A DNA stretch of 32,677 bases, taken from the IMG/VR virus record IMGVR_UViG_3300018083_000090, positions 1-32,677 of that record; one strand, written 5' to 3'. The stretch's first letter is position 1. Each line of letters starts with the position of its first letter. The stretch comes from a virus. The translations under genes were made by a program, and so were the position numbers. This document shows, in pieces, positions 994 through 10,274 of the stretch. Under the pieces are notes generated by a model, which made no database searches, was not told the origin of the DNA, and saw nothing but the letters and a program-made list of their open reading frames with translations.

Positions 994-1331
994 CTACGCT
1001 GGTTGCTACTGCGTAGCATGAACAGAATAGGGTGTAGCCAAAGAGGGGTAACGACCTACCCGAGCTAAGACGGGAATGATAGCGCCAATCCTTGCTGGCT
1101 ATCGTGGCTAGTCGCGGAACGGCCCTCTCTTAGCCCCTATATATTTTACCACCCTGGTAACGCGGGGTGCACTACGGACTCCTGTTGAACCGGGGGAATG
1201 TTGGTCATGCCTGGAGTTGGTTAGTGGGTATCATCGTTTGACGGTGGTAGATTCAAAACTAACCTCCCATGGCGCCGTTGGCTACGGTGTCTAAACGTTC
1301 TTGAGCTAGCCACTCAGGTCCAATAATACCG
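994..1331 (+). ncRNA. Structured non-coding region with kissing-loop pair, upstream of tRNA-Leu
   Basis: There is no credible gene in these 338 bases, but the plus strand is dense in complementary segments. Near the start are a GCTACGC/GCGTAGC pair (993-999/1011-1017) and the smaller hairpin TGCTAC-TGC-GTAGCA (1004-1018). A closed domain follows: ATAGGG 1027-1032 with CCCTAT 1135-1140, AGAGGG 1042-1047 with CCCTCT 1123-1128, hairpin CCCG 1059-1062/CGGG 1071-1074 and hairpin GATAGC 1078-1083/GCTATC 1098-1103. Next come CACCC/GGGTG (1150-1169), then GGTTAGT 1219-1225 with ACTAACC 1258-1264 enclosing a nine-pair hairpin (1229-1249). Two hairpins (1271-1291, 1300-1318) have complementary loops. 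Many pairs use G-U, which favours RNA over DNA structure. The 5' part (TGTAGCCAAA) resembles a tRNA-Gln 5' arm, but no T arm follows. The RNA class is unknown. Confidence 0.6.
1271..1318 (+). other. Two hairpins with complementary loops (kissing loop)
   Basis: Hairpin one is GGCGCCG 1271-1277 with CGGTGTC 1285-1291 and loop TTGGCTA. Hairpin two is CTTGAG 1300-1305 with CTCAGG 1313-1318 and loop CTAGCCA. TGGCTA 1279-1284 and TAGCCA 1307-1312 are perfectly complementary over six bases, and both loops have seven bases, the usual size for kissing loops. The interaction could be within one molecule or between copies. Confidence 0.6.
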
Positions 1332-1408
1332 TGAGGGATACGCAAATTGGTAAAGCGACTGCACTTAAAATGCAGTGTTTGTCGGTTCGAGTCCGACTCC
1401 CTCAACCA
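1332..1408 (+). tRNA. tRNA-Leu (UAA) with short variable loop
   Basis: The cloverleaf is clear. Acceptor TGAGGGA 1332-1338 pairs with TCCCTCA 1398-1404. The D stem is CGC/GCG with TTGG in the loop. Anticodon stem CTGCA 1359-1363 pairs with TGCAG 1371-1375 around CTTAAAA, giving anticodon TAA at 1366-1368. The T arm is GTCGG-TTCGAGT-CCGAC. Discriminator A1405 and encoded CCA follow. UAA reads UUA leucine codons. Leucine tRNAs normally have a long variable arm, but only five bases (TGTTT) lie between the anticodon and T stems, so this has class I shape. Confidence 0.88.
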
Positions 1409-1494
1409 ATTCAGCAGGCCTAGGACTAGGTAAGAGAGCTACTCCGTAGAGTTCCTATACGAGTGCTCCGCCTGTTACTAACTCGGAGGCCATC
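1409..1494 (+). promoter_or_regulatory. Folded leader of the 1495 gene, with possible ribosome-site masking
   Basis: Between the tRNA and the next gene, nested pairs form: GCAGGC 1414-1419 with GCCTGT 1470-1475, TAGGA 1421-1425 with TCCTA 1453-1457, and a CTAC-TCC-GTAG hairpin (1439-1449). The ribosome site CGGAGG (1484-1489) can instead pair with CTCCG 1466-1470, which shares one base with the first helix. The two folds could be mutually exclusive. This could equally be part of tRNA processing; no known riboswitch class is recognised. Confidence 0.35.
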
Positions 1495-1674
1495 ATGGCA
1501 GGGAAAGTCCCTAAGAAGCTCAATGTGTACAAGGTCACACGTCTCTGTGTGATTGATGATAGTACGCTTAAGCAAGGGCGTGTCCTTGACATGTGGGAGA
1601 TTAAGCTAGAGTTCTGTGTGCAAGATGGAGGAAAGACCCTCAAGATCTTTCTTACCGATAAGGAGCCAGTCTAA
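1495..1674 (+). CDS. Hypothetical protein, 59 aa
   Basis: The ATG at 1495 follows CGGAGG at good spacing. The product starts MAGKVPKKLNVYKVTRLC and alternates beta-type hydrophobic and charged residues (VLDMWEIKLEFCVQDGGK, then LKIFLTDKEPV), suggesting a small beta-rich cytoplasmic protein. The stop overlaps the next start as TAATG. No family is recognised. The codon pattern and coupling to its neighbour make a real gene likely. Confidence 0.65.
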   Translation: MAGKVPKKLNVYKVTRLCVIDDSTLKQGRVLDMWEIKLEFCVQDGGKTLKIFLTDKEPV

Positions 1675-2211: not shown

Positions 2212-2631
2212 ATGCGACTAGAAACCTACGCTATCTTCATGACCTCCGTCTCGGTCATGCTGCTGATTGCTGCTGCTTCCATTGGCATCTTTGCCTGGAG
2301 GTTGGAGAAAGAGAACGATGAATGGCGACATTCTCTCGCTGTTGCCAATGGCATCATCGGGCGCTGGCGTAACTACTTCACCATTCACAAAGGCGTTATG
2401 GAGAAGCACTATGCTTATCTCCAACATGCCGGATTGCAAGAGGCTTTCAATCTCTGGGCTAAGGAGAAAATGGAGCCTGATCCTGAACTAGTACACAAAA
2501 TCTCCCAGGCTTTGGGGGAGAGGGACGAGGTCATTGTGGAAGAAGCCACAGTGGAGATCGTACCTGACGATAAGGTAGAGATCATTGCTCTGCCTAAATT
2601 ACTACCCGTGCCTATGCGGGTGGATAGTTAG
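2212..2631 (+). CDS. Hypothetical membrane-anchored protein, 139 aa
   Basis: The ATG at 2212 follows AGGAGG at ideal spacing. Residues about 6-29 (YAIFMTSVSVMLLIAAASIGIFAW) are a strong N-terminal membrane span or uncleaved signal anchor. They are followed by a charged helical region (RLEKENDEWRHSLAVANGII) and an acidic tail rich in valine and glutamate. An N-terminal span followed by a helical soluble domain resembles i-spanins in topology, but no partner gene or motif supports that function here, and this region is remote from the lysis candidates at the right end. Family not recognised. Confidence 0.7.
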   Translation: MRLETYAIFMTSVSVMLLIAAASIGIFAWRLEKENDEWRHSLAVANGIIGRWRNYFTIHKGVMEKHYAYLQHAGLQEAFNLWAKEKMEPDPELVHKISQALGERDEVIVEEATVEIVPDDKVEIIALPKLLPVPMRVDS

Positions 2632-2672
2632 TGCGTGGCGTATGTACTGAACTACCACAGTGAGGTTGCGTT

Positions 2673-2969
2673 ATGAGTGCAAAGCTGCACACCAAATCGT
2701 TGGAAGTCGGGACCCTAAAGCCCGGCCACAAGATCGAGCTTGCTAAGGTTTACGTCCTTGTCAAGGCGATCCACCGTGCCGAGAAGGAAGGTCCTACTAT
2801 CGACGACGATGTCTTGCTACTTGAACTGGTTGGCGACTGCGGCCCGTTCAAGGGTAGGAAGACCCGGATCACCGTTTCGTCCAAGGCAAAGATGACGGTT
2901 GTTCTTCACAACCCTCTTCGCAAGCTCTGGGACAAGCTCCGGGCATTAGTCACTTGGCGCGTTGCCTAG
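2673..2969 (+). CDS. Hypothetical protein, 98 aa
   Basis: The ATG at 2673 has GTGAGGTT upstream. The protein (MSAKLHTKSLEVGTLKPGHK...) is basic and mixes beta-type segments (KVYVLVKAIHRAE, VLLLELVGDCGPFKG, RKTRITVSSKAKMTVVL) with a helical basic end. The middle could form a small beta barrel, but no family is recognised. It is the last gene before the 1.17-kb structured region. Confidence 0.65.
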   Translation: MSAKLHTKSLEVGTLKPGHKIELAKVYVLVKAIHRAEKEGPTIDDDVLLLELVGDCGPFKGRKTRITVSSKAKMTVVLHNPLRKLWDKLRALVTWRVA

Positions 2970-3049
2970 TGATAGATGCTACGCAGTAGCACCTGCGGAG
3001 CTATACGCGTTAGTTGCGTACAGGGTGTTACGGTTAGTCAACCACTAAG

Positions 3050-3108
3050 TCTCCTCCCAGTGTGGGTTCGAGTCCCACTATATGGCGCAATTGGTAGACG
3101 CAAGGAGA
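3050..3108 (+). ncRNA. tRNA-like elbow in permuted order inside the large RNA
   Basis: A perfect T arm (GTGGG 3062-3066, loop TTCGAGT, CCCAC 3074-3078) comes before a leucine-type D arm (GCG 3085-3087, loop with TTGG, CGC 3099-3101). They are enclosed by TCTCC 3050-3054 pairing with GGAGA 3104-3108, which occupy the 3' and 5' strands of an anticodon stem. The 3' half of a tRNA therefore precedes the 5' half. Only six bases (3079-3084) separate the arms, so no acceptor stem can form. It is a three-way junction able to make the D-loop/T-loop contact, not a chargeable tRNA. Confidence 0.65.
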
Positions 3109-3220
3109 TAAGGCCGTGTTATCAGGGGCTGCTCTGGACAATGGCTTCTTAAGGTGCTGATTAGACGTTAAACATTCTCAGAGTAACGTCCTATCCAACT
3201 CGATGTCACCTTTCCGGTGT

Positions 3221-3235
3221 CTGGATCGATACCAG
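3221..3235 (+). other. Hairpin with self-complementary loop
   Basis: CTGG 3221-3224 pairs with CCAG 3232-3235 around loop ATCGATA. ATCGAT is its own reverse complement, so two RNA copies could pair loop to loop, as in retroviral dimer-initiation hairpins. The stem is only four pairs. Confidence 0.45.
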
Positions 3236-3927
3236 CAGGGCCTAGCGGCCTTGGACTACGTAGGCACGTAGCTAGAGATATATAGGACATACGCTGGTCC
3301 GTTGTGGAGCTGCAAGACTTTAGGTGTGTGGGTTCCAAACCACTACCCATTGGTAGCCATAGGGGTCCTGGAGACTACCTGTCTAGTAGATCCTCCTTGT
3401 TCGACCTAGGCTTCTGGATGAGACTAAGACTGTGATTAAGTGTTGCGGATGGTAGTTAAGTTACCATGCTTAGGTTCATTAACCTTAGCGAGTGTCCCCG
3501 TAATCACGATCCCCTATATCAGTTGATAGCCCTCCTTCGTATGGAGGTTACTATCTCACCGGGTAATCCCGTGATATGGTATGGATAAGATGCACAGCAC
3601 CTACCTCGTCTGGGACTGTTCAAGCGGTTTTTCTACACAACAAAAGGCCGAAGAAGACTGACCATATCCTCCCATATGCTAGACGTGTCGCTCACCAAGC
3701 GACTCCCAGTGGGATAGCCAGCCGTTGGAATCTCTGAAAGGGTTCCTTCTATTCGAGGTTGGATACGTCCACTTGTGCATAGCTTAGTGCCATTGTTGCC
3801 CCAGATCAGGGTGTTTCTTGGAACGGGTAGGATGGAACGGCAAACGACGTGCAAATCGTCGAATGGTCCCGTGCATGGTGCGATAAACCGCAGGTCTAAG
3901 TGGTCCATTCCAGCTCAGCCCAGCATG

Positions 3928-4038
3928 TGGGGGAGGGGGCGCAGTCAAATGCCTCCCCCAAACTAAGCTCACGGGTGCAAGTAAGTGGCTAAGTTTGTTA
4001 GTTGTATGCAGCGTAGCAGAGTCCCGTGTGTTTAGTTT
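3928..4038 (+). other. 3' domain of the large RNA: G/C-rich hairpin and long closing helix
   Basis: TGGGGGAGG 3928-3936 pairs with CCTCCCCCA 3952-3960. Directly after it, AAACTAA 3960-3966 pairs with TTAGTTT 4032-4038 and CACGGG 3970-3975 pairs with CCCGTG 4023-4028, separated by a symmetric three-base internal loop. A CTAA/TTAG hairpin lies inside. GCGTAGCA 4011-4018 is complementary to TGCTACGC 2977-2984 at the 5' end of the region, so an end-to-end contact is possible. Confidence 0.55.
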
Positions 4039-4094
4039 GTCATGCTTAAAGAGTTGTTCTGCGGCAATACTTAAGGAATTTCCCACCAAAATCC

Positions 4095-4114
4095 CGAAGC
4101 CGCGTAAGGCTTCG
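4095..4114 (+). other. Hairpin before the 4139 gene
   Basis: CGAAGCC 4095-4101 pairs perfectly with GGCTTCG 4108-4114 around GCGTAA. It is followed by C/T-mixed sequence without a T run, so it is not a standard terminator. It may mark the 3' end or a processing site of the large RNA. AAGGGCGAG, the ribosome site of the next gene, begins shortly after. Confidence 0.45.
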
Positions 4115-4138
4115 CCTTCCCACCACCAAGGGCGAGAT

Positions 4139-4405
4139 ATGGACGATCAACAGATCAAGGTAGAGAAACGCTACCGTATTTACTATTGGTCGGGTCGCTT
4201 CCAGCAATTTGCTAACCGCCTTGGCATGGAGGGCTCCCCACCACGTGTAAGATGGTCCCCTAGGGCCAATGAGTATCCTGATCACTTTTCTAAGAAAGAA
4301 ATGGAGGATATCCTTCGTTTCTATTCAGATCAGTATCAGATTTTGAAGGTAGAGACTACATATGTAGCAGTAGGAGTGAGTGACGATGAAGGAAGTGATG
4401 GATGA
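4139..4405 (+). CDS. Hypothetical protein, 88 aa
   Basis: The ATG at 4139 has AAGGGCGAG upstream; a longer in-frame extension to 3995 runs into the structured RNA and is not credible. The protein (MDDQQIKVEKRYRIYYWSG...) is aromatic and basic in its first half and ends in an acidic tail (SDDEGSDG). No family or metal motif is recognised. Its stop overlaps the cyclotransferase-like gene, so it may be the first gene of the amide-modification block. Confidence 0.6.
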   Translation: MDDQQIKVEKRYRIYYWSGRFQQFANRLGMEGSPPRVRWSPRANEYPDHFSKKEMEDILRFYSDQYQILKVETTYVAVGVSDDEGSDG

Positions 4406-4757
4406 GTTTGTTTTTGTCTACGGAACTCTAAAGAAAGGTAAGAGCGCACATAAATTCCTAAAAAATGCTGAATTTCTTGGTCCGGGTGTTGTTAAAGGGA
4501 CCATGTATGGTCATGGAATGGTTCCATATCCTATGATCAAGCTTTCAGGTGAAAAAACAGTCCAAGGTGAGCTTTATGCTGTCACTAAGGACATGCTTGA
4601 GAGTATGGATCGGTATGAAGGGCACCCACACCACTATAAGAGAATTGAAGTAGGTGTTTGGGAGCCTGATGATCCTATTTCTAATGCAAAGGCTTGGGTC
4701 TACGAGTATCAAGGCTCTGTCGAAGGGCTTGATGTAATCAGTGAAGGAGTATTCTGA
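4386..4757 (+). CDS. Gamma-glutamylcyclotransferase-like (AIG2/GGCT) protein
   Basis: The 123-aa product carries the signature of the AIG2/BtrG cyclotransferase fold: YGTLKKG at residues 12-18 (substrate and oxyanion loop) and DRYEGHPHHYKR near 75-86, where Glu78 in the RYEG motif is the expected catalytic acid. Family members release gamma-glutamyl groups as 5-oxoproline or remove gamma-glutamyl protecting groups. The ATG at 4386 is chosen because GGAG lies nine bases upstream; GTG 4380 and ATG 4398 are alternatives. The stop overlaps the next start as TGATG. Together with the amidoligases, ATP-grasp and amidotransferase downstream, it probably acts on a gamma-glutamyl-type amide made by that system. 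The in-block role is inferred. Confidence 0.85.
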   Translation: MKEVMDEFVFVYGTLKKGKSAHKFLKNAEFLGPGVVKGTMYGHGMVPYPMIKLSGEKTVQGELYAVTKDMLESMDRYEGHPHHYKRIEVGVWEPDDPISNAKAWVYEYQGSVEGLDVISEGVF

Positions 4758-4891
4758 TGGGACGCAAGGTTATTCACACGGGCTCTGGTCTTAAGGGTAC
4801 AGTGACTAAGCAAGATGGAGCATACTCCTGGGTCCTCTTGGAGGATGGGAGTGAAGTCTACATCTATTCTGGCGAACTAATGGACCAATAG
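4757..4891 (+). CDS. Small beta-barrel-like protein, 44 aa
   Basis: The start overlaps the previous stop (TGATG) and has GAAGGAG upstream. The sequence (MGRKVIHTGSGLKGTVTKQD, ending GSEVYIYSGELMDQ) has the spacing of a small SH3/KOW-like barrel: GxxGxV, a Trp-Val-Leu-Leu strand, then DGSEVYIYSGEL. No specific family is recognised. The coupling on both sides suggests it belongs to the same operon. Confidence 0.65.
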   Translation: MGRKVIHTGSGLKGTVTKQDGAYSWVLLEDGSEVYIYSGELMDQ

Positions 4892-4900
4892 GAGTCAAGT

Positions 4901-5809
4901 ATGCGTATCGATATCAAAGGTACTCTGGATGTTGTTGAAGTATTCGCCGATCATTCACTCGACAAGAAACCTAAGACAGGCACACATACTACAGTAGCTG
5001 TTATGTCTGATAAGACACACATTGCTTATCAGTGTCACGGCTGTCAGGCCTGTCTAGGTGAGATGTTTAGTGGTGTGTATTACACTACTACAGGATATAC
5101 GACAAGGAAACCTACTGCTATCTACTCAAGTCTCTGGAAGAGACCTGATCAGACCTACGAGGATGCGCTAGCCTACTGGAAGTTCATGTTGAACCCTAGG
5201 TGGAGTCCATATCGTAGTGTCTTGAAGGATTCGGAGATCATCTATCATGAAGAGAAGCCTATTGCATATGTACTGCGGGATATGGATACGTCTCCGCAGA
5301 CAGTCGCAAACCTGTGCTTCGCAATGCGGATGCCCTATGCGCAAGATGGATACTTGCGTATGTTTACAGCACTACGAGAGGCAGGTTTCACTAATGCGGA
5401 GTCGTCTTTCGTCACAGCTAATGCGAGACTAACGCCTAAAGGTTCTATTGGATTCCCTTACATCGGGGACTATCCTTTCGATACCTGCTGGGCAAATATG
5501 TCTTGGAGCGCTTGGAAAGAGGGTAAGCCAAAGACTAATGGTAAACTTATCTCAGAAGGTAATGGGGAGTATCGCCCCTGCAATGTTATCTGGAGTGTCG
5601 CGAAGGTTCCAGGTGCATCTGATAACTATGGAGTCAGTGGACGTAAGCCTACTATCATTCAGAAGCTACTGAGTGGTAAGTTTGAATACAAGGGCAGCTT
5701 CAAGAAGAACTTCAATAGCATCAGCAGCACTGTGCCTCTTGGTGCTGTGGAGTTCGACAAGGCTGTCACAATCCTCCGGGATAACAAAGCAGATTGGCAG
5801 GTAGGCTAA
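4901..5809 (+). CDS. Unknown protein of the amide-modification operon, 302 aa
   Basis: The ATG at 4901 follows TAGGAGT. The protein has an N-terminal beta-rich part with a cysteine cluster (CHGCQAC at about 45-51), an aromatic-rich middle (YEDALAYWKFMLNPRWSPYR) and a conserved-looking segment (GFPYIGDYPFDTCW). The CxxCxxC may bind metal or be structural. No transmembrane segment is visible. I do not recognise the family. Its place between the cyclotransferase-like and amidotransferase genes, with a start-stop overlap to the next gene, suggests a dedicated function in the pathway, such as substrate supply or carrier, which is inference. Confidence 0.75.
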   Translation: MRIDIKGTLDVVEVFADHSLDKKPKTGTHTTVAVMSDKTHIAYQCHGCQACLGEMFSGVYYTTTGYTTRKPTAIYSSLWKRPDQTYEDALAYWKFMLNPRWSPYRSVLKDSEIIYHEEKPIAYVLRDMDTSPQTVANLCFAMRMPYAQDGYLRMFTALREAGFTNAESSFVTANARLTPKGSIGFPYIGDYPFDTCWANMSWSAWKEGKPKTNGKLISEGNGEYRPCNVIWSVAKVPGASDNYGVSGRKPTIIQKLLSGKFEYKGSFKKNFNSISSTVPLGAVEFDKAVTILRDNKADWQVG

Positions 5810-5925
5810 TGGCAACAGGACCTAAGCCCAAACGAGAGACTAAGAAGAAAGCTAAGGGCTATCGCAAGCATGTCAGGGAGAAGGCTTGGCGCGAGCGCAA
5901 GCGTCTGGAAAGGTTGGGCAGATAA
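5809..5925 (+). CDS. Basic 38-aa peptide
   Basis: The start overlaps the previous stop and the stop overlaps the amidotransferase start (TAATG on both sides). The peptide (MATGPKPKRETKKKAKGYRK, ending ERKRLERLGR) is more than 40 percent Lys and Arg and likely helical. It could bind nucleic acid, or be the protein substrate or leader of the surrounding ligases. Neither can be shown from sequence. Confidence 0.6.
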   Translation: MATGPKPKRETKKKAKGYRKHVREKAWRERKRLERLGR

Positions 5926-7139
5926 TGTGTGGACTCTTTGGCGTTTACGCTGGCTCAACTCTCTCTAAGATGGAGATTGATGCCTTTGTGGAGCTAGGCT
6001 TTGTTAGTGGTACACGTGGCCTGGACTCCACAGGTGTGCTCAAGTGCCATCGTAAAGGCCACAACAAGTTCAGCATTACAAGTGAGAAAGATGTAGGTAA
6101 TCCTATGTCTTTCTTGTCTCGCTATACTACTCAATCCTTCATGCGAGATAAGAGCCCATTGATGCTAATGGGTCATGCTCGATGGGCTACAATTGGTGAT
6201 GTCAATAGAGGCAATGCTCAGCCTATCCATGAAGGCAATATCCTCGGCTGTCACAATGGTACTATCGATTACTATTCTCCCAAGAACAAGGAAGACCTCA
6301 AACATACAACAGATAGCCGCAATCTGTTCAAGACTATCAACAAGGAAGGTATTGTTAAAGCACTAAGCAAGACTAGTGTAGGTGCTTATGCATTGACCTT
6401 TGTAGATACTCATCAACGCACTCTCAACTTCATCCGCAACAGTGAGAGAGAACTCTGGCTAGTCAAGAGCAAGGCTCAGAGCCTGTTCTGGGCTAGTGAG
6501 AGGCGTATCCTAGAGTTCATGATGGAAGAGCTAGGTGGTAAGGATCGCTATGATCTCCCACATCTCATCTCAAAGAATTCTCTTCACTCCGTTATCTTAG
6601 GTGATGGTATTGGAGATATCAAAATTCAATACCTCGACAGTGATATCACTAAGGAGTACAACAAGACCTTCTATCCAAGCGCTAGTAAGCCTTGGGAAAA
6701 GAATGGTACCTCTGTTCCTCTTCTCACGTCACAGGCTCCGCCTATCTCAGGTCTCTTCTGTACAGCTTGCTGCTGGAACTTCAACCAATGCAAGTGTGCT
6801 AAAGGTGTGAAGAAAAGCTACATTAGGCCTGATCCTAAGCTGATCTCTGCTAATCTTATGTACTACACACCAGAGAATGCTAAGACAGTGGTGCCACATG
6901 ATGTGGAGAAGTACATCGGCTATGAGAGAAGGAACCTAGCACTATCTGTTGCTAAGGCACTCCTTGATGAGGGTTGCTCTGGGTGTAACAACAAGTTCGG
7001 TATCGAGAACAAGGTCTATTGGTTCTCCGAGAAGGAGTATGTCTGTAGAGACTGCAAGGAGACCAATGAGGTCATACAAGCTGACCTTAAGAAGGTCAAG
7101 ATCTATGGTAGTGGTGTATATGTGGAGCGAGTGAACTAA
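5925..7139 (+). CDS. Class II (Ntn-type) glutamine amidotransferase
   Basis: The start is set at 5925 because it yields MCGLFGVY: Cys2 becomes the N-terminal nucleophile after Met removal, as the mechanism requires; an upstream in-frame extension would bury it. Further family motifs are RGLDSTG (31-37), GHARWAT (83-89) and HNGT (110-113), the glutamine-binding set also found in GlmS, PurF and AsnB. The enzyme hydrolyses glutamine to supply ammonia. The 404-aa protein has no synthetase or isomerase domain; its C-terminal half instead has cysteine knuckles (CTACCWNFNQCKC, and a CxxC pair with a later CRDC) likely to bind zinc. Ammonia is therefore probably passed to a partner, most likely an amidoligase encoded next to it. 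The stop overlaps the next start. Confidence 0.9.
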   Translation: MCGLFGVYAGSTLSKMEIDAFVELGFVSGTRGLDSTGVLKCHRKGHNKFSITSEKDVGNPMSFLSRYTTQSFMRDKSPLMLMGHARWATIGDVNRGNAQPIHEGNILGCHNGTIDYYSPKNKEDLKHTTDSRNLFKTINKEGIVKALSKTSVGAYALTFVDTHQRTLNFIRNSERELWLVKSKAQSLFWASERRILEFMMEELGGKDRYDLPHLISKNSLHSVILGDGIGDIKIQYLDSDITKEYNKTFYPSASKPWEKNGTSVPLLTSQAPPISGLFCTACCWNFNQCKCAKGVKKSYIRPDPKLISANLMYYTPENAKTVVPHDVEKYIGYERRNLALSVAKALLDEGCSGCNNKFGIENKVYWFSEKEYVCRDCKETNEVIQADLKKVKIYGSGVYVERVN

Positions 7140-7879
7140 TGTCGTTCAAAGTAGGCGGTGATCCTGAGTTCTTTATCCTGAGAGATGGTACACCTGTCTC
7201 TGCACATGATCTTCTTCCAGGCTCTAAGGAAGAGCCTTATCCATTGGAGCATGGCGATGTCCAAGTTGACGGTATGGCAGGTGAAGTCAACATTCGGCCA
7301 TCTTCCAGTGCAGAAGAGTTTGAGTATAACGTCAGGGCCGTATTCTCCGATGTTCGTAAGATGCTTCCAAAGCACTTTGACATCGCATTCAAACCTTCGG
7401 TGGAGTTCCTGGATTCGACCTTGGCTACAGTACCTGATTCTCAGAAGGAACTCGGGTGCTCCCCGGATTTCAATGCCTATAGCGGACTGATGAATGAGAG
7501 TCCTATGCTTGAGCTTAAGAAAGTGCCTAATCTTCGCTCAGCAGGTGGTCATATCTGTGTAGGCTGGGGTGAGAACTTCGACAAGAAGGATGCAAGCCAT
7601 GTCCTCGACTGTGAGAGTTTCATTAAACACATCGACCCTATATACAGAAGCTTCTCCACCCTATGGGATCGCGATCAGAGGAGAGCTATGCTTTACGGTA
7701 GACCTGGCGCTTACAGAGCGACAGCTTTTGGAGTTGAATACCGAACTCCTAGCAACGCTTGGGTCGCTCATCCGAAAATGTACCCATTCATATTCGCACT
7801 AGCAGAGAACACCATGCTCCACATGATGGGGGAGCCCGGTAAGGAACTAACATTCAAGAGTGAGTGGATCGATGGCTAA
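7139..7879 (+). CDS. phiEco32-type amidoligase (COOH-NH2 ligase, type 2)
   Basis: The 246-aa protein shows the pattern of the phage branch of glutamine-synthetase-like amidoligases: GGDPEFFI at residues 6-13, HGDVQVDGMAGEVNIRP at 38-54, a GGHICVGWG segment (H in a beta strand) and a late EYRTPS motif. The acidic and His residues in these motifs match the metal/ATP-binding positions of the fold. Such enzymes join a carboxyl group to an amine or ammonia using ATP. The ATG overlaps the amidotransferase stop, and its own end overlaps the next start by eight bases. Substrate is unknown; the neighbouring amidotransferase suggests ammonia or an amine derived from it. Confidence 0.85.
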   Translation: MSFKVGGDPEFFILRDGTPVSAHDLLPGSKEEPYPLEHGDVQVDGMAGEVNIRPSSSAEEFEYNVRAVFSDVRKMLPKHFDIAFKPSVEFLDSTLATVPDSQKELGCSPDFNAYSGLMNESPMLELKKVPNLRSAGGHICVGWGENFDKKDASHVLDCESFIKHIDPIYRSFSTLWDRDQRRAMLYGRPGAYRATAFGVEYRTPSNAWVAHPKMYPFIFALAENTMLHMMGEPGKELTFKSEWIDG

Positions 7880-8492
7880 GCCATACTTTGCAAGAGAGGA
7901 TGCCATCAGGCGTCTCCATGATACCATCTGTATGTACTATGGCCTTCCATACTACGTCAACATGGAAGGTCAGATTGACCAGTACAAGGTCAACATCTAT
8001 CCTCTGAGTTACTTCTATGGACCTAGGAGTGGCAGAGAGAAGCCTAAGACTGTTGACTATACAGATGAAAAATTTGACTACAAACAATTCCCTCTCGGCT
8101 ATGGCTACTCAAAGACTCATGGTGGATTGTACTTCTCTCGTATCCCTGATCGTAAACAACAGCAGGGATTGAACTATAGTACGCTGCGGATCAATGGGCA
8201 AGTTGCGCAGGGTCCCTCGACTATGCTTACTGAAGTTATGGAGAACTGTATCCTTGGTAGGTACCAACCATTAGAGCAGGCCATTAGTCTGGTTAAAAGC
8301 GGCTCAACTGGTACAGTACCTTTCCATAGACGTATGGCAGTATCCATGATTGATCGTGGACTTATCTCTCTCAAGTATCGACTCCGCTCAGTTGGTATCC
8401 TTGATGGTAAGAAGTCCTTCAAACTGCTGGATAACAGGGACAAGGAGTTCCTGCGTAATGTGATCTCGAAAGAGGGAGTTTCTGTTTCATGA
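7872..8492 (+). CDS. Unknown protein between the two amidoligases, 206 aa
   Basis: The ATG at 7872 overlaps the upstream stop as ATGGCTAA; a longer GTG start at 7860 is possible. The protein has a tyrosine-rich N-terminal half (ICMYYGLPYYVNMEG, YPLSYFYGP), a basic centre and a helical C-terminus (LDNRDKEFLRNVISKEG). No membrane span, metal cluster or known nucleotide motif is visible. Strict coupling on both sides argues for a stoichiometric role with the ligases, for example as a scaffold or substrate, but this is inference. Confidence 0.75.
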   Translation: MAKPYFAREDAIRRLHDTICMYYGLPYYVNMEGQIDQYKVNIYPLSYFYGPRSGREKPKTVDYTDEKFDYKQFPLGYGYSKTHGGLYFSRIPDRKQQQGLNYSTLRINGQVAQGPSTMLTEVMENCILGRYQPLEQAISLVKSGSTGTVPFHRRMAVSMIDRGLISLKYRLRSVGILDGKKSFKLLDNRDKEFLRNVISKEGVSVS

Positions 8493-9454
8493 AGTTGAGT
8501 CAGTTCGGTCTTCATCGCAACAAGAGAGGCGACATTGGCATTGAGATCGAGGTCGAGGGGGAGGAGCAACTTACGCCCATCGAGAGTGATTGGTGGGCCT
8601 CTAAGAAAGAGGACTCCCTACGCTTCTACGGTATGGAGTATGTCACCACAAGGCCACTTAACTCTGGTCAAGAGGTCAGGGATGCGGTTGACTACATCTG
8701 TAAAATTATCAACAAGAAAAAGATTGTCAAGGATACTAACCGCACGAGTATCCACACGCATCATAACATGACCAAGAGAGACATCAGACATGTCTTGAAT
8801 GGTGTCTGTGTCTTCTGGATTGTGGAGAATGTTCTTGCCAGATACTGTGGTGAGGATAGAGAGAGCAATCTCTTCTGCATGAGGCTCAAGGATGCAGAGG
8901 CTGTGCTTGATGAGACAATCAAGCAGCTAGATCAACGTCCTCCTCTAATGATGTTTGGTAAAGGTGGAGATACTGTACGCTACGCAGGTCTCAACCTAGG
9001 CGCACTCAGGAACTATGGTTCCTTGGAAGTACGCCTTAAGCAAGGTACTACTGATCCAGAGGAGATCATTGAATGGGCTGAAGCTATGCATGAACTCTTC
9101 TGTCTCGGTGAGTCTTGGAAAGATCCTTCAGAGTTTTTTGATTGGTATGTGTACAATGGTTCTAAGAAATTACTTGAGCGAATTTTTGCAGAAAAATTTG
9201 CCACCAAACTGAGGGATCGAGTTCCCAACTACAAAAACCTGATGGAGGAGAATGCGATCCTTGTGAGCGAGCTAGCCTACGCTAAAGACTGGGACGAATG
9301 GGTAGCTCAACTAGCTAAGGGTGACTATGCCAAGCCTATGAAGACCGACTACAATTACAACCATGCTTATCAGCCAATCACAACATCACAGATACAAGCA
9401 GGAATACCTATCACTTTCACAACCTCCCACACAGGAACAGCAAGCAATGTCTAA
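8489..9454 (+). CDS. Amidoligase, Amidoligase_2 type
   Basis: The 321-aa protein opens with GIEIEVEG (Glu19, Glu21 and Glu23), the acidic strand that defines the putative amidoligase family of the glutamine-synthetase fold. It continues with EDSLRFYGMEYVTTRPL, then TSIHTHHNM (paired His on a strand), and later GSLEVRLKQGTTD with the ExR motif. It is distinct from the amidoligase 600 bp upstream, so the phage has two divergent ligases in one operon. The start overlaps the previous stop by four bases (ATGA). The last about 60 residues are a polar, Thr-rich tail. The enzyme is expected to activate a carboxylate with ATP and form an amide or peptide-like bond. Confidence 0.85.
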   Translation: MKLSQFGLHRNKRGDIGIEIEVEGEEQLTPIESDWWASKKEDSLRFYGMEYVTTRPLNSGQEVRDAVDYICKIINKKKIVKDTNRTSIHTHHNMTKRDIRHVLNGVCVFWIVENVLARYCGEDRESNLFCMRLKDAEAVLDETIKQLDQRPPLMMFGKGGDTVRYAGLNLGALRNYGSLEVRLKQGTTDPEEIIEWAEAMHELFCLGESWKDPSEFFDWYVYNGSKKLLERIFAEKFATKLRDRVPNYKNLMEENAILVSELAYAKDWDEWVAQLAKGDYAKPMKTDYNYNHAYQPITTSQIQAGIPITFTTSHTGTASNV

Positions 9455-10274
9455 GGTACACATCCTCCTCTACGACAAGAACGACAGCGGTGGTAATGCT
9501 CTTAAGGCTAAGATGGGTCTTAAGCGTATTCTTAAGACAGGATCGGAGTACCAAGCTAGCCCGGATAAGGTCATCATTAACTGGGGTAACTCCCGGATGC
9601 TATCTCACTGCAAAGGTAGCCAGTTTATTAACCATCCAGATGCTGTTTCTATCTCTGTTGATAAGATCAAGGCTTTTAAGGCTATGGAGGGTAAGTGTAG
9701 ACATGTACCTTTTACCACTAATAGACTGGAGGCCCTTAAGTGGCTCGGTATTGGCCATAAGGTGGTCTGTAGGGACGTAGTTAATGGGTCAGAGGGCAGT
9801 GGTATCCGTATAATCGAAGCTACGGCCCCTAATTTGACCGTACAGAGCGATCCTGGGTTCATGGCTACCCTCATGGCCTGGTTTACAAGTCCCTCTGCAG
9901 AGTCAAATTTGGGACTCCTAGGGCATAGTCCCCTTTACACCCAGTTTGTACCCTTCAAGAAGGAGTACAGGGTCCATGTCGTTAACGGCAAGGCTGTTAA
10001 TGTACGACGGAAGGTAACTAGTGTAGACCAGCCTACTGTAGTGGGGGACTTTAAGAATGTCACTATTTACCATCAAGACATAGTAGATCAGGCAGTAAAG
10101 GCGACAAAGGCTGTAGGCCTGGACTTCGCTGGAGTAGATGTCCTTTGGGACGGTGCTAAGGCCTGGGTGCTGGAGACGAATACTGCTCCATCAATCGGAG
10201 GTACCTTAACCGTGCAAGGATATGCTGACGAGCTTAAGAAAATGATCAAGGAAAAGTACAACATTACCTGCTGA
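9447..10274 (+). CDS. ATP-grasp ligase (RimK-like)
   Basis: The ATG at 9447 is preceded by AGGAAC and overlaps the amidoligase stop by eight bases. Motifs typical of ATP-grasp enzymes appear in order over 275 aa: a Lys-containing beta strand (KVVCRDVVNGSEGSGI), the YTQFVPFKKEYRVHVVNGK segment, and the metal site FAGVDVLWDG with WVLETNTAPSIGG, where Glu and Asn bind Mg-ATP. The enzyme forms an acyl-phosphate and then an amide with an amine. The closest fold relatives add amino acids such as glutamate to peptide ends. It is the last gene of the amide-modification block, directly before a terminator. Confidence 0.9.
   Translation: MSKVHILLYDKNDSGGNALKAKMGLKRILKTGSEYQASPDKVIINWGNSRMLSHCKGSQFINHPDAVSISVDKIKAFKAMEGKCRHVPFTTNRLEALKWLGIGHKVVCRDVVNGSEGSGIRIIEATAPNLTVQSDPGFMATLMAWFTSPSAESNLGLLGHSPLYTQFVPFKKEYRVHVVNGKAVNVRRKVTSVDQPTVVGDFKNVTIYHQDIVDQAVKATKAVGLDFAGVDVLWDGAKAWVLETNTAPSIGGTLTVQGYADELKKMIKEKYNITC

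What the first reader, a model, noticed from the sequence alone, without database searches (positions are those of the whole stretch)
3050..3108. Circularly permuted tRNA elbow without acceptor stem
A perfect leucine-type T arm precedes a leucine-type D arm, and both are enclosed by the two strands of an anticodon stem in reversed order. Only six bases separate the arms, too few for an acceptor stem. This is not a normal or a classical permuted tRNA gene; it looks like a tRNA core re-used as a structural module, able to form the D-loop/T-loop contact, within a larger RNA.
Basis: seen in the sequence. Interest (0 to 1): 0.72.

Follow-up and report, generated by a model that had tools for sequence, protein, structure and literature searches.

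The report
Acceptor-less Y-RNA-type tRNA mimic
A phage noncoding stretch contains a rearranged, stripped-down tRNA elbow with the same inside-out layout as the tRNA mimic of bacterial Y RNAs (the RNA partners of Ro60), so it is a variant of a known kind of RNA rather than a decayed or wholly new one.

Summary
Window 3049-3109 contains, in order: anticodon-stem strand, T arm, six bases, Leu-type D arm, anticodon-stem strand. It is that of the tRNA-mimicking module of bacterial Y RNAs (YrlA, RF02553), a published circular permutation of tRNA entered through the anticodon stem.

I found dozens of such modules in phage contigs. In 16 aligned ones the closing helix, T stem and acceptor hairpin covary. 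The tertiary Levitt pair 15-48 switches G-C/A-U in 30 of 31 modules (p=9e-8). The closing helix sits at exact tRNA spacing (5 nt/1 nt). A model trained without the window finds 3053-3108 as its best window hit (25.5 bits, E about 1e-6). Similar modules lie beside Ro60 (TROVE) genes in three contigs and next to annotated Ro-like genes in mycobacteriophages. One of them also lacks an acceptor stem.

The window element is therefore a Y-RNA-type module without acceptor stem. It lies in a roughly 1-kb noncoding region of a contig that appears incomplete and has no TROVE gene. It is not a YrlA member by Rfam's cutoff (13.7 of 69 bits). No homologue of the surrounding RNA was found, so its function is inferred.

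The parts
3049..3055 (+). 5' strand of the closing (anticodon-type) helix, GTCTCCT
   Evidence: pairs with AGGAGAT 3103-3109, 7 bp; p=0.0019 at tRNA spacing; the same register covaries in phage relatives
3056..3061 (+). variable-loop equivalent CCCAGT; position 48 = T3061
   Evidence: 6 nt between helix and T arm (5 in most relatives); T48 matches A15
3062..3078 (+). T arm GTGGG-TTCGAGT-CCCAC
   Evidence: 5/5 pairs and canonical loop; one of only 3 in the window
3079..3082 (+). TATA linker in place of the acceptor stem (0 bp)
   Evidence: read from sequence; comparable very short linkers CTTCG in L146 and CGCAG in L133/L161
3083..3084 (+). U8-G9 equivalents
   Evidence: TG before the D stem as in tRNA-Leu; relatives have TA or TG
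3085..3101 (+). Leu-type D arm GCG-CAATTGGTAGA-CGC
   Evidence: 3-bp stem; A14, A15, G18, G19, A21 present; aligned by R1
3102..3102 (+). position 26 equivalent (1-nt joint)
   Evidence: 1 nt in the main register of relatives
3103..3109 (+). 3' strand of the closing helix, AGGAGAT
   Evidence: see 3049-3055
2970..3994 (+). noncoding region that carries the module (extent of any transcript unknown)
   Evidence: no + strand ORF of at least 60 aa before 3775; no ORF of at least 125 aa called in it; no Rfam match
2987..2994 (+). candidate outer stem, 5' strand TAGCACCT (speculative)
   Evidence: 8 bp with 3152-3159 incl. one G-U; not tested for significance
3152..3159 (+). candidate outer stem, 3' strand AGGTGCTG (speculative)
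   Evidence: partner of 2987-2994

Best explanation
The element is a Y-RNA-type (YrlA-like) tRNA-mimic module in a phage noncoding RNA. It is a circularly permuted tRNA-Leu-like core, entered through the anticodon stem, with the acceptor stem reduced to a four-base linker. The closing helix 3049-3055/3103-3109 stacks on the D arm; T and D loops dock to form the tRNA elbow (G18-U55, G19-C56, U8-A14 and A15-U48 possible). The anticodon helix ties this elbow to the rest of the transcript. With no acceptor end it cannot be charged, CCA-tailed or made into a tRNA. The inferred mechanism is that the elbow is the handle by which the RNA engages tRNA-binding proteins (tRNA-modifying enzymes, PNPase or other elbow binders) while the remaining RNA binds a second partner, a Ro60-type (Rsr) protein in phages that encode one. 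Shown by computation: anatomy, layout, class-wide covariation, Ro60 gene neighbourhood of relatives. Inferred: transcription, folding in the cell, the partner and the biological role.
For: RF02553 has the same order (stem, T arm, capped acceptor hairpin, D arm, stem) and aligns the window arm for arm, though weakly: 13.7 bits, and 36.3 bits for a clearer phage copy in L014. PMC11472068 states that the solved Y RNA 6CU1 superposes on tRNA by circular permutation. Viral scans for T arm - short gap - D arm gave 15 Leu-type and 38 Y-type loci. In 29 deduplicated Y-type modules the closing helix is complete in 8 at the register 5 nt/1 nt and in at most 1 at any other. In 16 aligned modules the structure scores 0.503 for covariation against 0.136 shuffled and at most 0.124 slid. 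Levitt pair 15-48: 18 G-C, 12 A-U, 1 exception, p=9e-8; the window is A-U. Model R1, trained without the window, ranks it first there. TROVE genes occur in 5 of 30 module-bearing records, close to modules in three; G019 has a module with linker CGCAG about 1 kb from a 559-aa TROVE ORF. R1 finds 53-64 bit modules next to annotated Ro-like genes in BackyardAgain, Sparky and Forza. L010, a phage with 39-47% identical polymerase segments, has the same Leu-type module in a 1.5-kb noncoding region.
Against: RF02553 score is far below its cutoff of 69. No TROVE gene in the 32.7-kb record, although no capsid, portal or terminase was recognised and the record may be a fragment. The Ro-binding outer stem of relatives (GTGCGCAG / CTTGAYC internal loop in L161) was not found in the window flanks. 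The closing helix has 6 rather than 5 nt before the T arm. No direct homologue of the 1-kb region was found, so no covariation exists for the window element itself. No transcript data.
Confidence: 0.68

Rival explanations
1. Decayed tandem: the 3' half of one broken tRNA-Leu fused by deletion to the 5' half of a second, with no present function.
For: In bacterial genomes all seven hits of a stricter version of the pattern look like this, a broken T arm just before an ordinary tRNA-Leu. Both halves here are Leu-like. The TATA linker is short.
Against: Here no anticodon arm or second T arm follows the D arm and no tRNA is called. Both stems are perfect. The closing helix has p=0.0019 at tRNA spacing and the Levitt pair is intact, which fusion does not predict. 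R1 gives such controls about 11-13 bits against 25.5 here.
Confidence: 0.15
2. Structural elbow of a large ornate RNA (about 1 kb), used only to bend or pack that RNA and unrelated in function to Y RNAs.
For: The module lies in a 1-kb noncoding region, and a relative (L010) has one in 1.5 kb with two more strict T arms. L014 and L162 hold several modules in one stretch.
Against: No Rfam large-RNA match. The region is not clearly more stable than shuffled sequence (z -1.8; L010 -1.0). No homologue shows conservation outside the module.
Confidence: 0.25
3. Classical circularly permuted tRNA gene, processed through a circle into a working tRNA.
For: Order 3' half then 5' half, as in permuted tRNA genes (PMC10085705, citing Soma 2014).
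Against: Six bases cannot hold a 7-bp acceptor stem; there is no anticodon loop, only a continuing helix.
Confidence: 0.02

Closest known systems
YrlA / bacterial Y RNA (RF02553; solved structure 6CU1)
   Same: Circularly permuted tRNA-like module entered through the anticodon stem; T arm before D arm; same joints; tRNA tertiary core
   Different: Window has no acceptor hairpin (TATA), a Leu-type 3-bp D arm, no recognisable Rsr-binding stem, no TROVE gene in the record; 13.7 bits against a cutoff of 69
Phage Y RNAs beside Ro-like genes (seen here in BackyardAgain, Sparky, Forza, G019, G036, G014; Y RNAs in mycobacteriophages reported by Chen et al. 2014 as cited in PMC12282133)
   Same: Same module and geometry; some also have very short or no acceptor stem (L133/L161, L146)
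   Different: Those near Ro genes have GCTC/GAGC D arms and a Ro gene next door
Circularly permuted tRNA genes of archaea and algae
   Same: T half before D half
   Different: They keep acceptor stem and anticodon loop and mature to tRNA
GOLLD / ROOL large phage RNAs
   Same: Long phage noncoding regions near tRNA genes
   Different: No covariance-model match
yjdF riboswitch (tRNA-like fold, PMC9142559)
   Same: D-loop/T-loop elbow reused outside translation
   Different: Not permuted; ligand-binding mRNA leader

Membership tests
YrlA (RF02553) | Order: stem - T arm - acceptor-like hairpin - D arm - stem | tested here: met
   Arm-for-arm alignment; R1 hit 25.5 bits
YrlA (RF02553) | Capped acceptor-like hairpin between T and D arms | tested here: not met
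   Only TATA at 3079-3082; but very short linkers occur in some phage Y-type modules, one near a TROVE gene
YrlA (RF02553) | Score at or above the family's gathering score (69 bits) | tested here: not met
   13.7 bits; none of 30 phage Y-type records reaches it either
YrlA (RF02553) | Rsr-binding outer stem with conserved internal loop | tested here: inconclusive
   Only an unproven 8-bp outer stem 2987-2994/3152-3159; no GTGCGCAG/CTTGAYC loop
YrlA (RF02553) | Ro60-type (TROVE) gene in the genome | tested here: inconclusive
   None in the 32.7-kb record, which appears incomplete
Phage Y-type permuted module (model R1, this work) | Anticodon-type closing helix at tRNA spacing plus matching Levitt pair 15-48 | tested here: met
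   7 bp at 6 nt/1 nt; A15-U48
Functional or permuted tRNA gene | 7-bp acceptor stem and anticodon loop | tested here: not met
   Six bases between arms; not called
GOLLD / ROOL | Covariance-model match | tested here: not met
   No match up to E=10 in 2600-4500
YrlA / Y RNA | Binding to Rsr and PNPase | not testable with these tools
   Needs biochemistry

The most novel reading that the evidence does not exclude
Phages without a Ro60 gene carry an acceptor-less, tRNA-Leu-derived branch of Y-RNA-type modules inside long noncoding RNAs. There the permuted elbow is a docking handle or decoy for host tRNA-binding proteins, independent of Ro60.
Probability: 0.35. Interest if true: 0.68.

Novelty: new variant of a known kind. 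Interest (0 to 1): 0.5.

Why it matters
Y RNAs are known as partners of Ro60 and as tRNA mimics, but what the mimic binds is unsettled. The phage set shows by covariation, including a tertiary pair, that the permuted elbow is under selection while its acceptor end is dispensable. The window and relatives such as L010 suggest the elbow also exists in records without Ro60 and with a class II (Leu) tRNA origin, which gives natural variants for testing what the elbow is for.

Tried and rejected
GOLLD/ROOL or another Rfam family: no match. Homologues of the whole 1-kb region: blastn in phages, local blastn and nhmmer found only the module. Close relatives through the primase: 80 loci, but the nearest (L004) ends before the region and L031, the next, goes from an HNH gene to the amidotransferase gene with no such region. 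Query with window:4901-5809: nothing. A second module at 3317-3365: 5.9 bits, chance. Bacterial genome hits of the pattern: ordinary tRNA-Leu genes with broken T arms. RF02553 and R1 also ring on tandem tRNAs, so scores alone do not separate the classes; linker length and the closing helix do. Structure by MFE: uninformative. Listeria phage P100, whose close relative has very abundant putative Y RNAs (PMC12282133): R1 hits there were of tandem-tRNA size and undecided.

Full report
What is there. The sequence at 3049-3109 is exactly as described and slightly better: GTCTCCT | CCCAGT | T arm | TATA | TG | D arm | A | AGGAGAT. The closing helix is 7 bp. Both arms carry every base needed for a tRNA elbow (T54, T55, C56, A58; A14, G18, G19). 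The same T-arm pattern occurs only in the two real tRNA genes of the window. The helix has p=0.0019 against shuffled flanks when restricted to tRNA-like joints.

Surroundings. The record is a 32.7-kb virus contig with family A polymerase, primase-helicase, UDG, endonuclease I and an amidoligase/ATP-grasp/amidotransferase cassette. I recognised no capsid, portal or terminase gene, so it may be incomplete. The module lies near the 5' end of a roughly 1-kb noncoding region (2970-3994) that follows a small gene. No Rfam family matches and the region is only weakly more stable than shuffled sequence.

The layout is known. Rfam's YrlA model has the order stem, T arm, capped hairpin, D arm, stem, and it aligns to the window arm for arm at a low score. 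A structural paper states that the solved Y RNA superposes on tRNA with a circular permutation (PMC11472068). A review describes YrlA as a basal stem that binds Rsr plus a tRNA-like domain modified by DusA and TruB (PMC8394870). The finding is thus the tRNA-mimic layout of Y RNAs, except that the acceptor hairpin is missing.

Is the class real in phages? Scans of viral contigs for a T arm followed within a few bases by a D arm gave 15 Leu-type and 38 Y-type loci. A scan of bacterial genomes with a stricter Leu-type pattern gave seven, which look like ordinary tRNA-Leu genes behind a broken T arm; they serve as the artefact control. Among 29 deduplicated Y-type loci the closing helix is complete in 8 at 5 nt before the T arm and 1 nt after the D arm, the spacing of tRNA, and in at most 1 at any other register. 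Alignment of 16 gives covariation in the closing helix (all 5 pairs change on both sides), T stem and acceptor hairpin; slid versions lose it. Most but not all of the 16 were included because they have the helix; the register count was not selected that way. The tertiary pair 15-48, which in a permuted module joins bases just before the T arm to the D loop downstream, is G-C in 18, A-U in 12 and broken in 1. Tandem ordinary tRNAs would not give this. The window has A15-U48.

Position of the window element. A covariance model built from the 16 without the window finds 3053-3108 as its best hit in the window at 25.5 bits; the real tRNA-Leu reaches 15.5 and artefact controls about 11-13. Tandem tRNA genes elsewhere can score higher than the window, so the claim rests on anatomy plus score. 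The lost acceptor stem has parallels: L146 has CTTCG and L133/L161 has CGCAG in that place.

Link to Ro60. TROVE genes occur in 5 of 30 module-bearing phage records. In G036, G014 and G019 the modules lie about 0.6-1.4 kb upstream of the TROVE ORF; in G019 one of them is the short-linker form. As a positive control, the model finds strong modules next to the annotated Ro-like gene in Mycobacterium phages BackyardAgain and Sparky and near it in Gordonia phage Forza; in the LukeCage and Atu_ph07 stretches it did not. Published work predicts Y RNAs in mycobacteriophages and suspects them in a Listeria phage (PMC12282133). The window record and the Leu-type records tested have no TROVE gene, but these may be fragments.

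Relatives of the window phage. The nearest contig ends before the region. L010, whose polymerase is 39-47% identical over two segments, has a Leu-type capped module and two further strict T arms in 1.5 kb of noncoding sequence between its ssb and exonuclease genes. A closing helix is not evident there. So the module type recurs in this broad lineage at a different genome position, but the RNAs around it cannot be aligned.

Mechanism and limits. I read the element as a docking elbow tethered by the anticodon helix. In known Y RNAs this part is modified by tRNA enzymes and is reported to bind PNPase while the stem binds Rsr. Here only the elbow is recognisable; the Rsr stem is not, so the partner is open. 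Decay from two tRNA-Leu genes remains possible because no orthologue of this element was found.

Noticed in passing
window 2976-3005 and 989-1019; L004 6062-6089: A hairpin (ATGCTACGCAGTAGCACCTGCGGAGC...) starts two noncoding regions just after a stop codon, in inverted orientation, and recurs upstream of ssb in the related contig L004. It may be a mobile palindrome, terminator or processing site.
   Followed up: partly
window 994-1496: A second noncoding stretch of about 500 nt with an ordinary tRNA-Leu(TAA) inside it.
   Followed up: no
L010 1220-2753: 1.5-kb noncoding region in a related phage with the capped permuted module and two more strict T arms, several followed by short hairpins; it looks like a chain of tRNA-like units without normal acceptor stems.
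   Followed up: partly
L014 8506-8672; L129 7312-7424; L162 (G036) 60480-60869: Two or three permuted tRNA-like modules in a row; in G036 an 11-bp stem encloses two of them. Multi-elbow Y-type RNAs.
   Followed up: partly
L161 (G019) 62800-63360: Two Y-type modules share an outer stem with compensatory changes (GTGCCTG/CAGGCAC and TGCCCG/CGGGCA) around a conserved internal loop GTGCGCAG / CTTGAYC, a candidate Ro60-binding site.
   Followed up: partly
phages collection: 342 phage records encode a Ro60-like protein, mostly Mycobacterium and Streptomyces phages.
   Followed up: partly
window 4380-10274: Cassette of gamma-glutamyl cyclotransferase, glutamine amidotransferase, amidoligase and ATP-grasp genes, shared with Rhizobium and Sinorhizobium phages.
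   Followed up: no
L008 2924-2993: A type-P3 twister ribozyme in a viral contig, near tRNA-like pieces.
   Followed up: no
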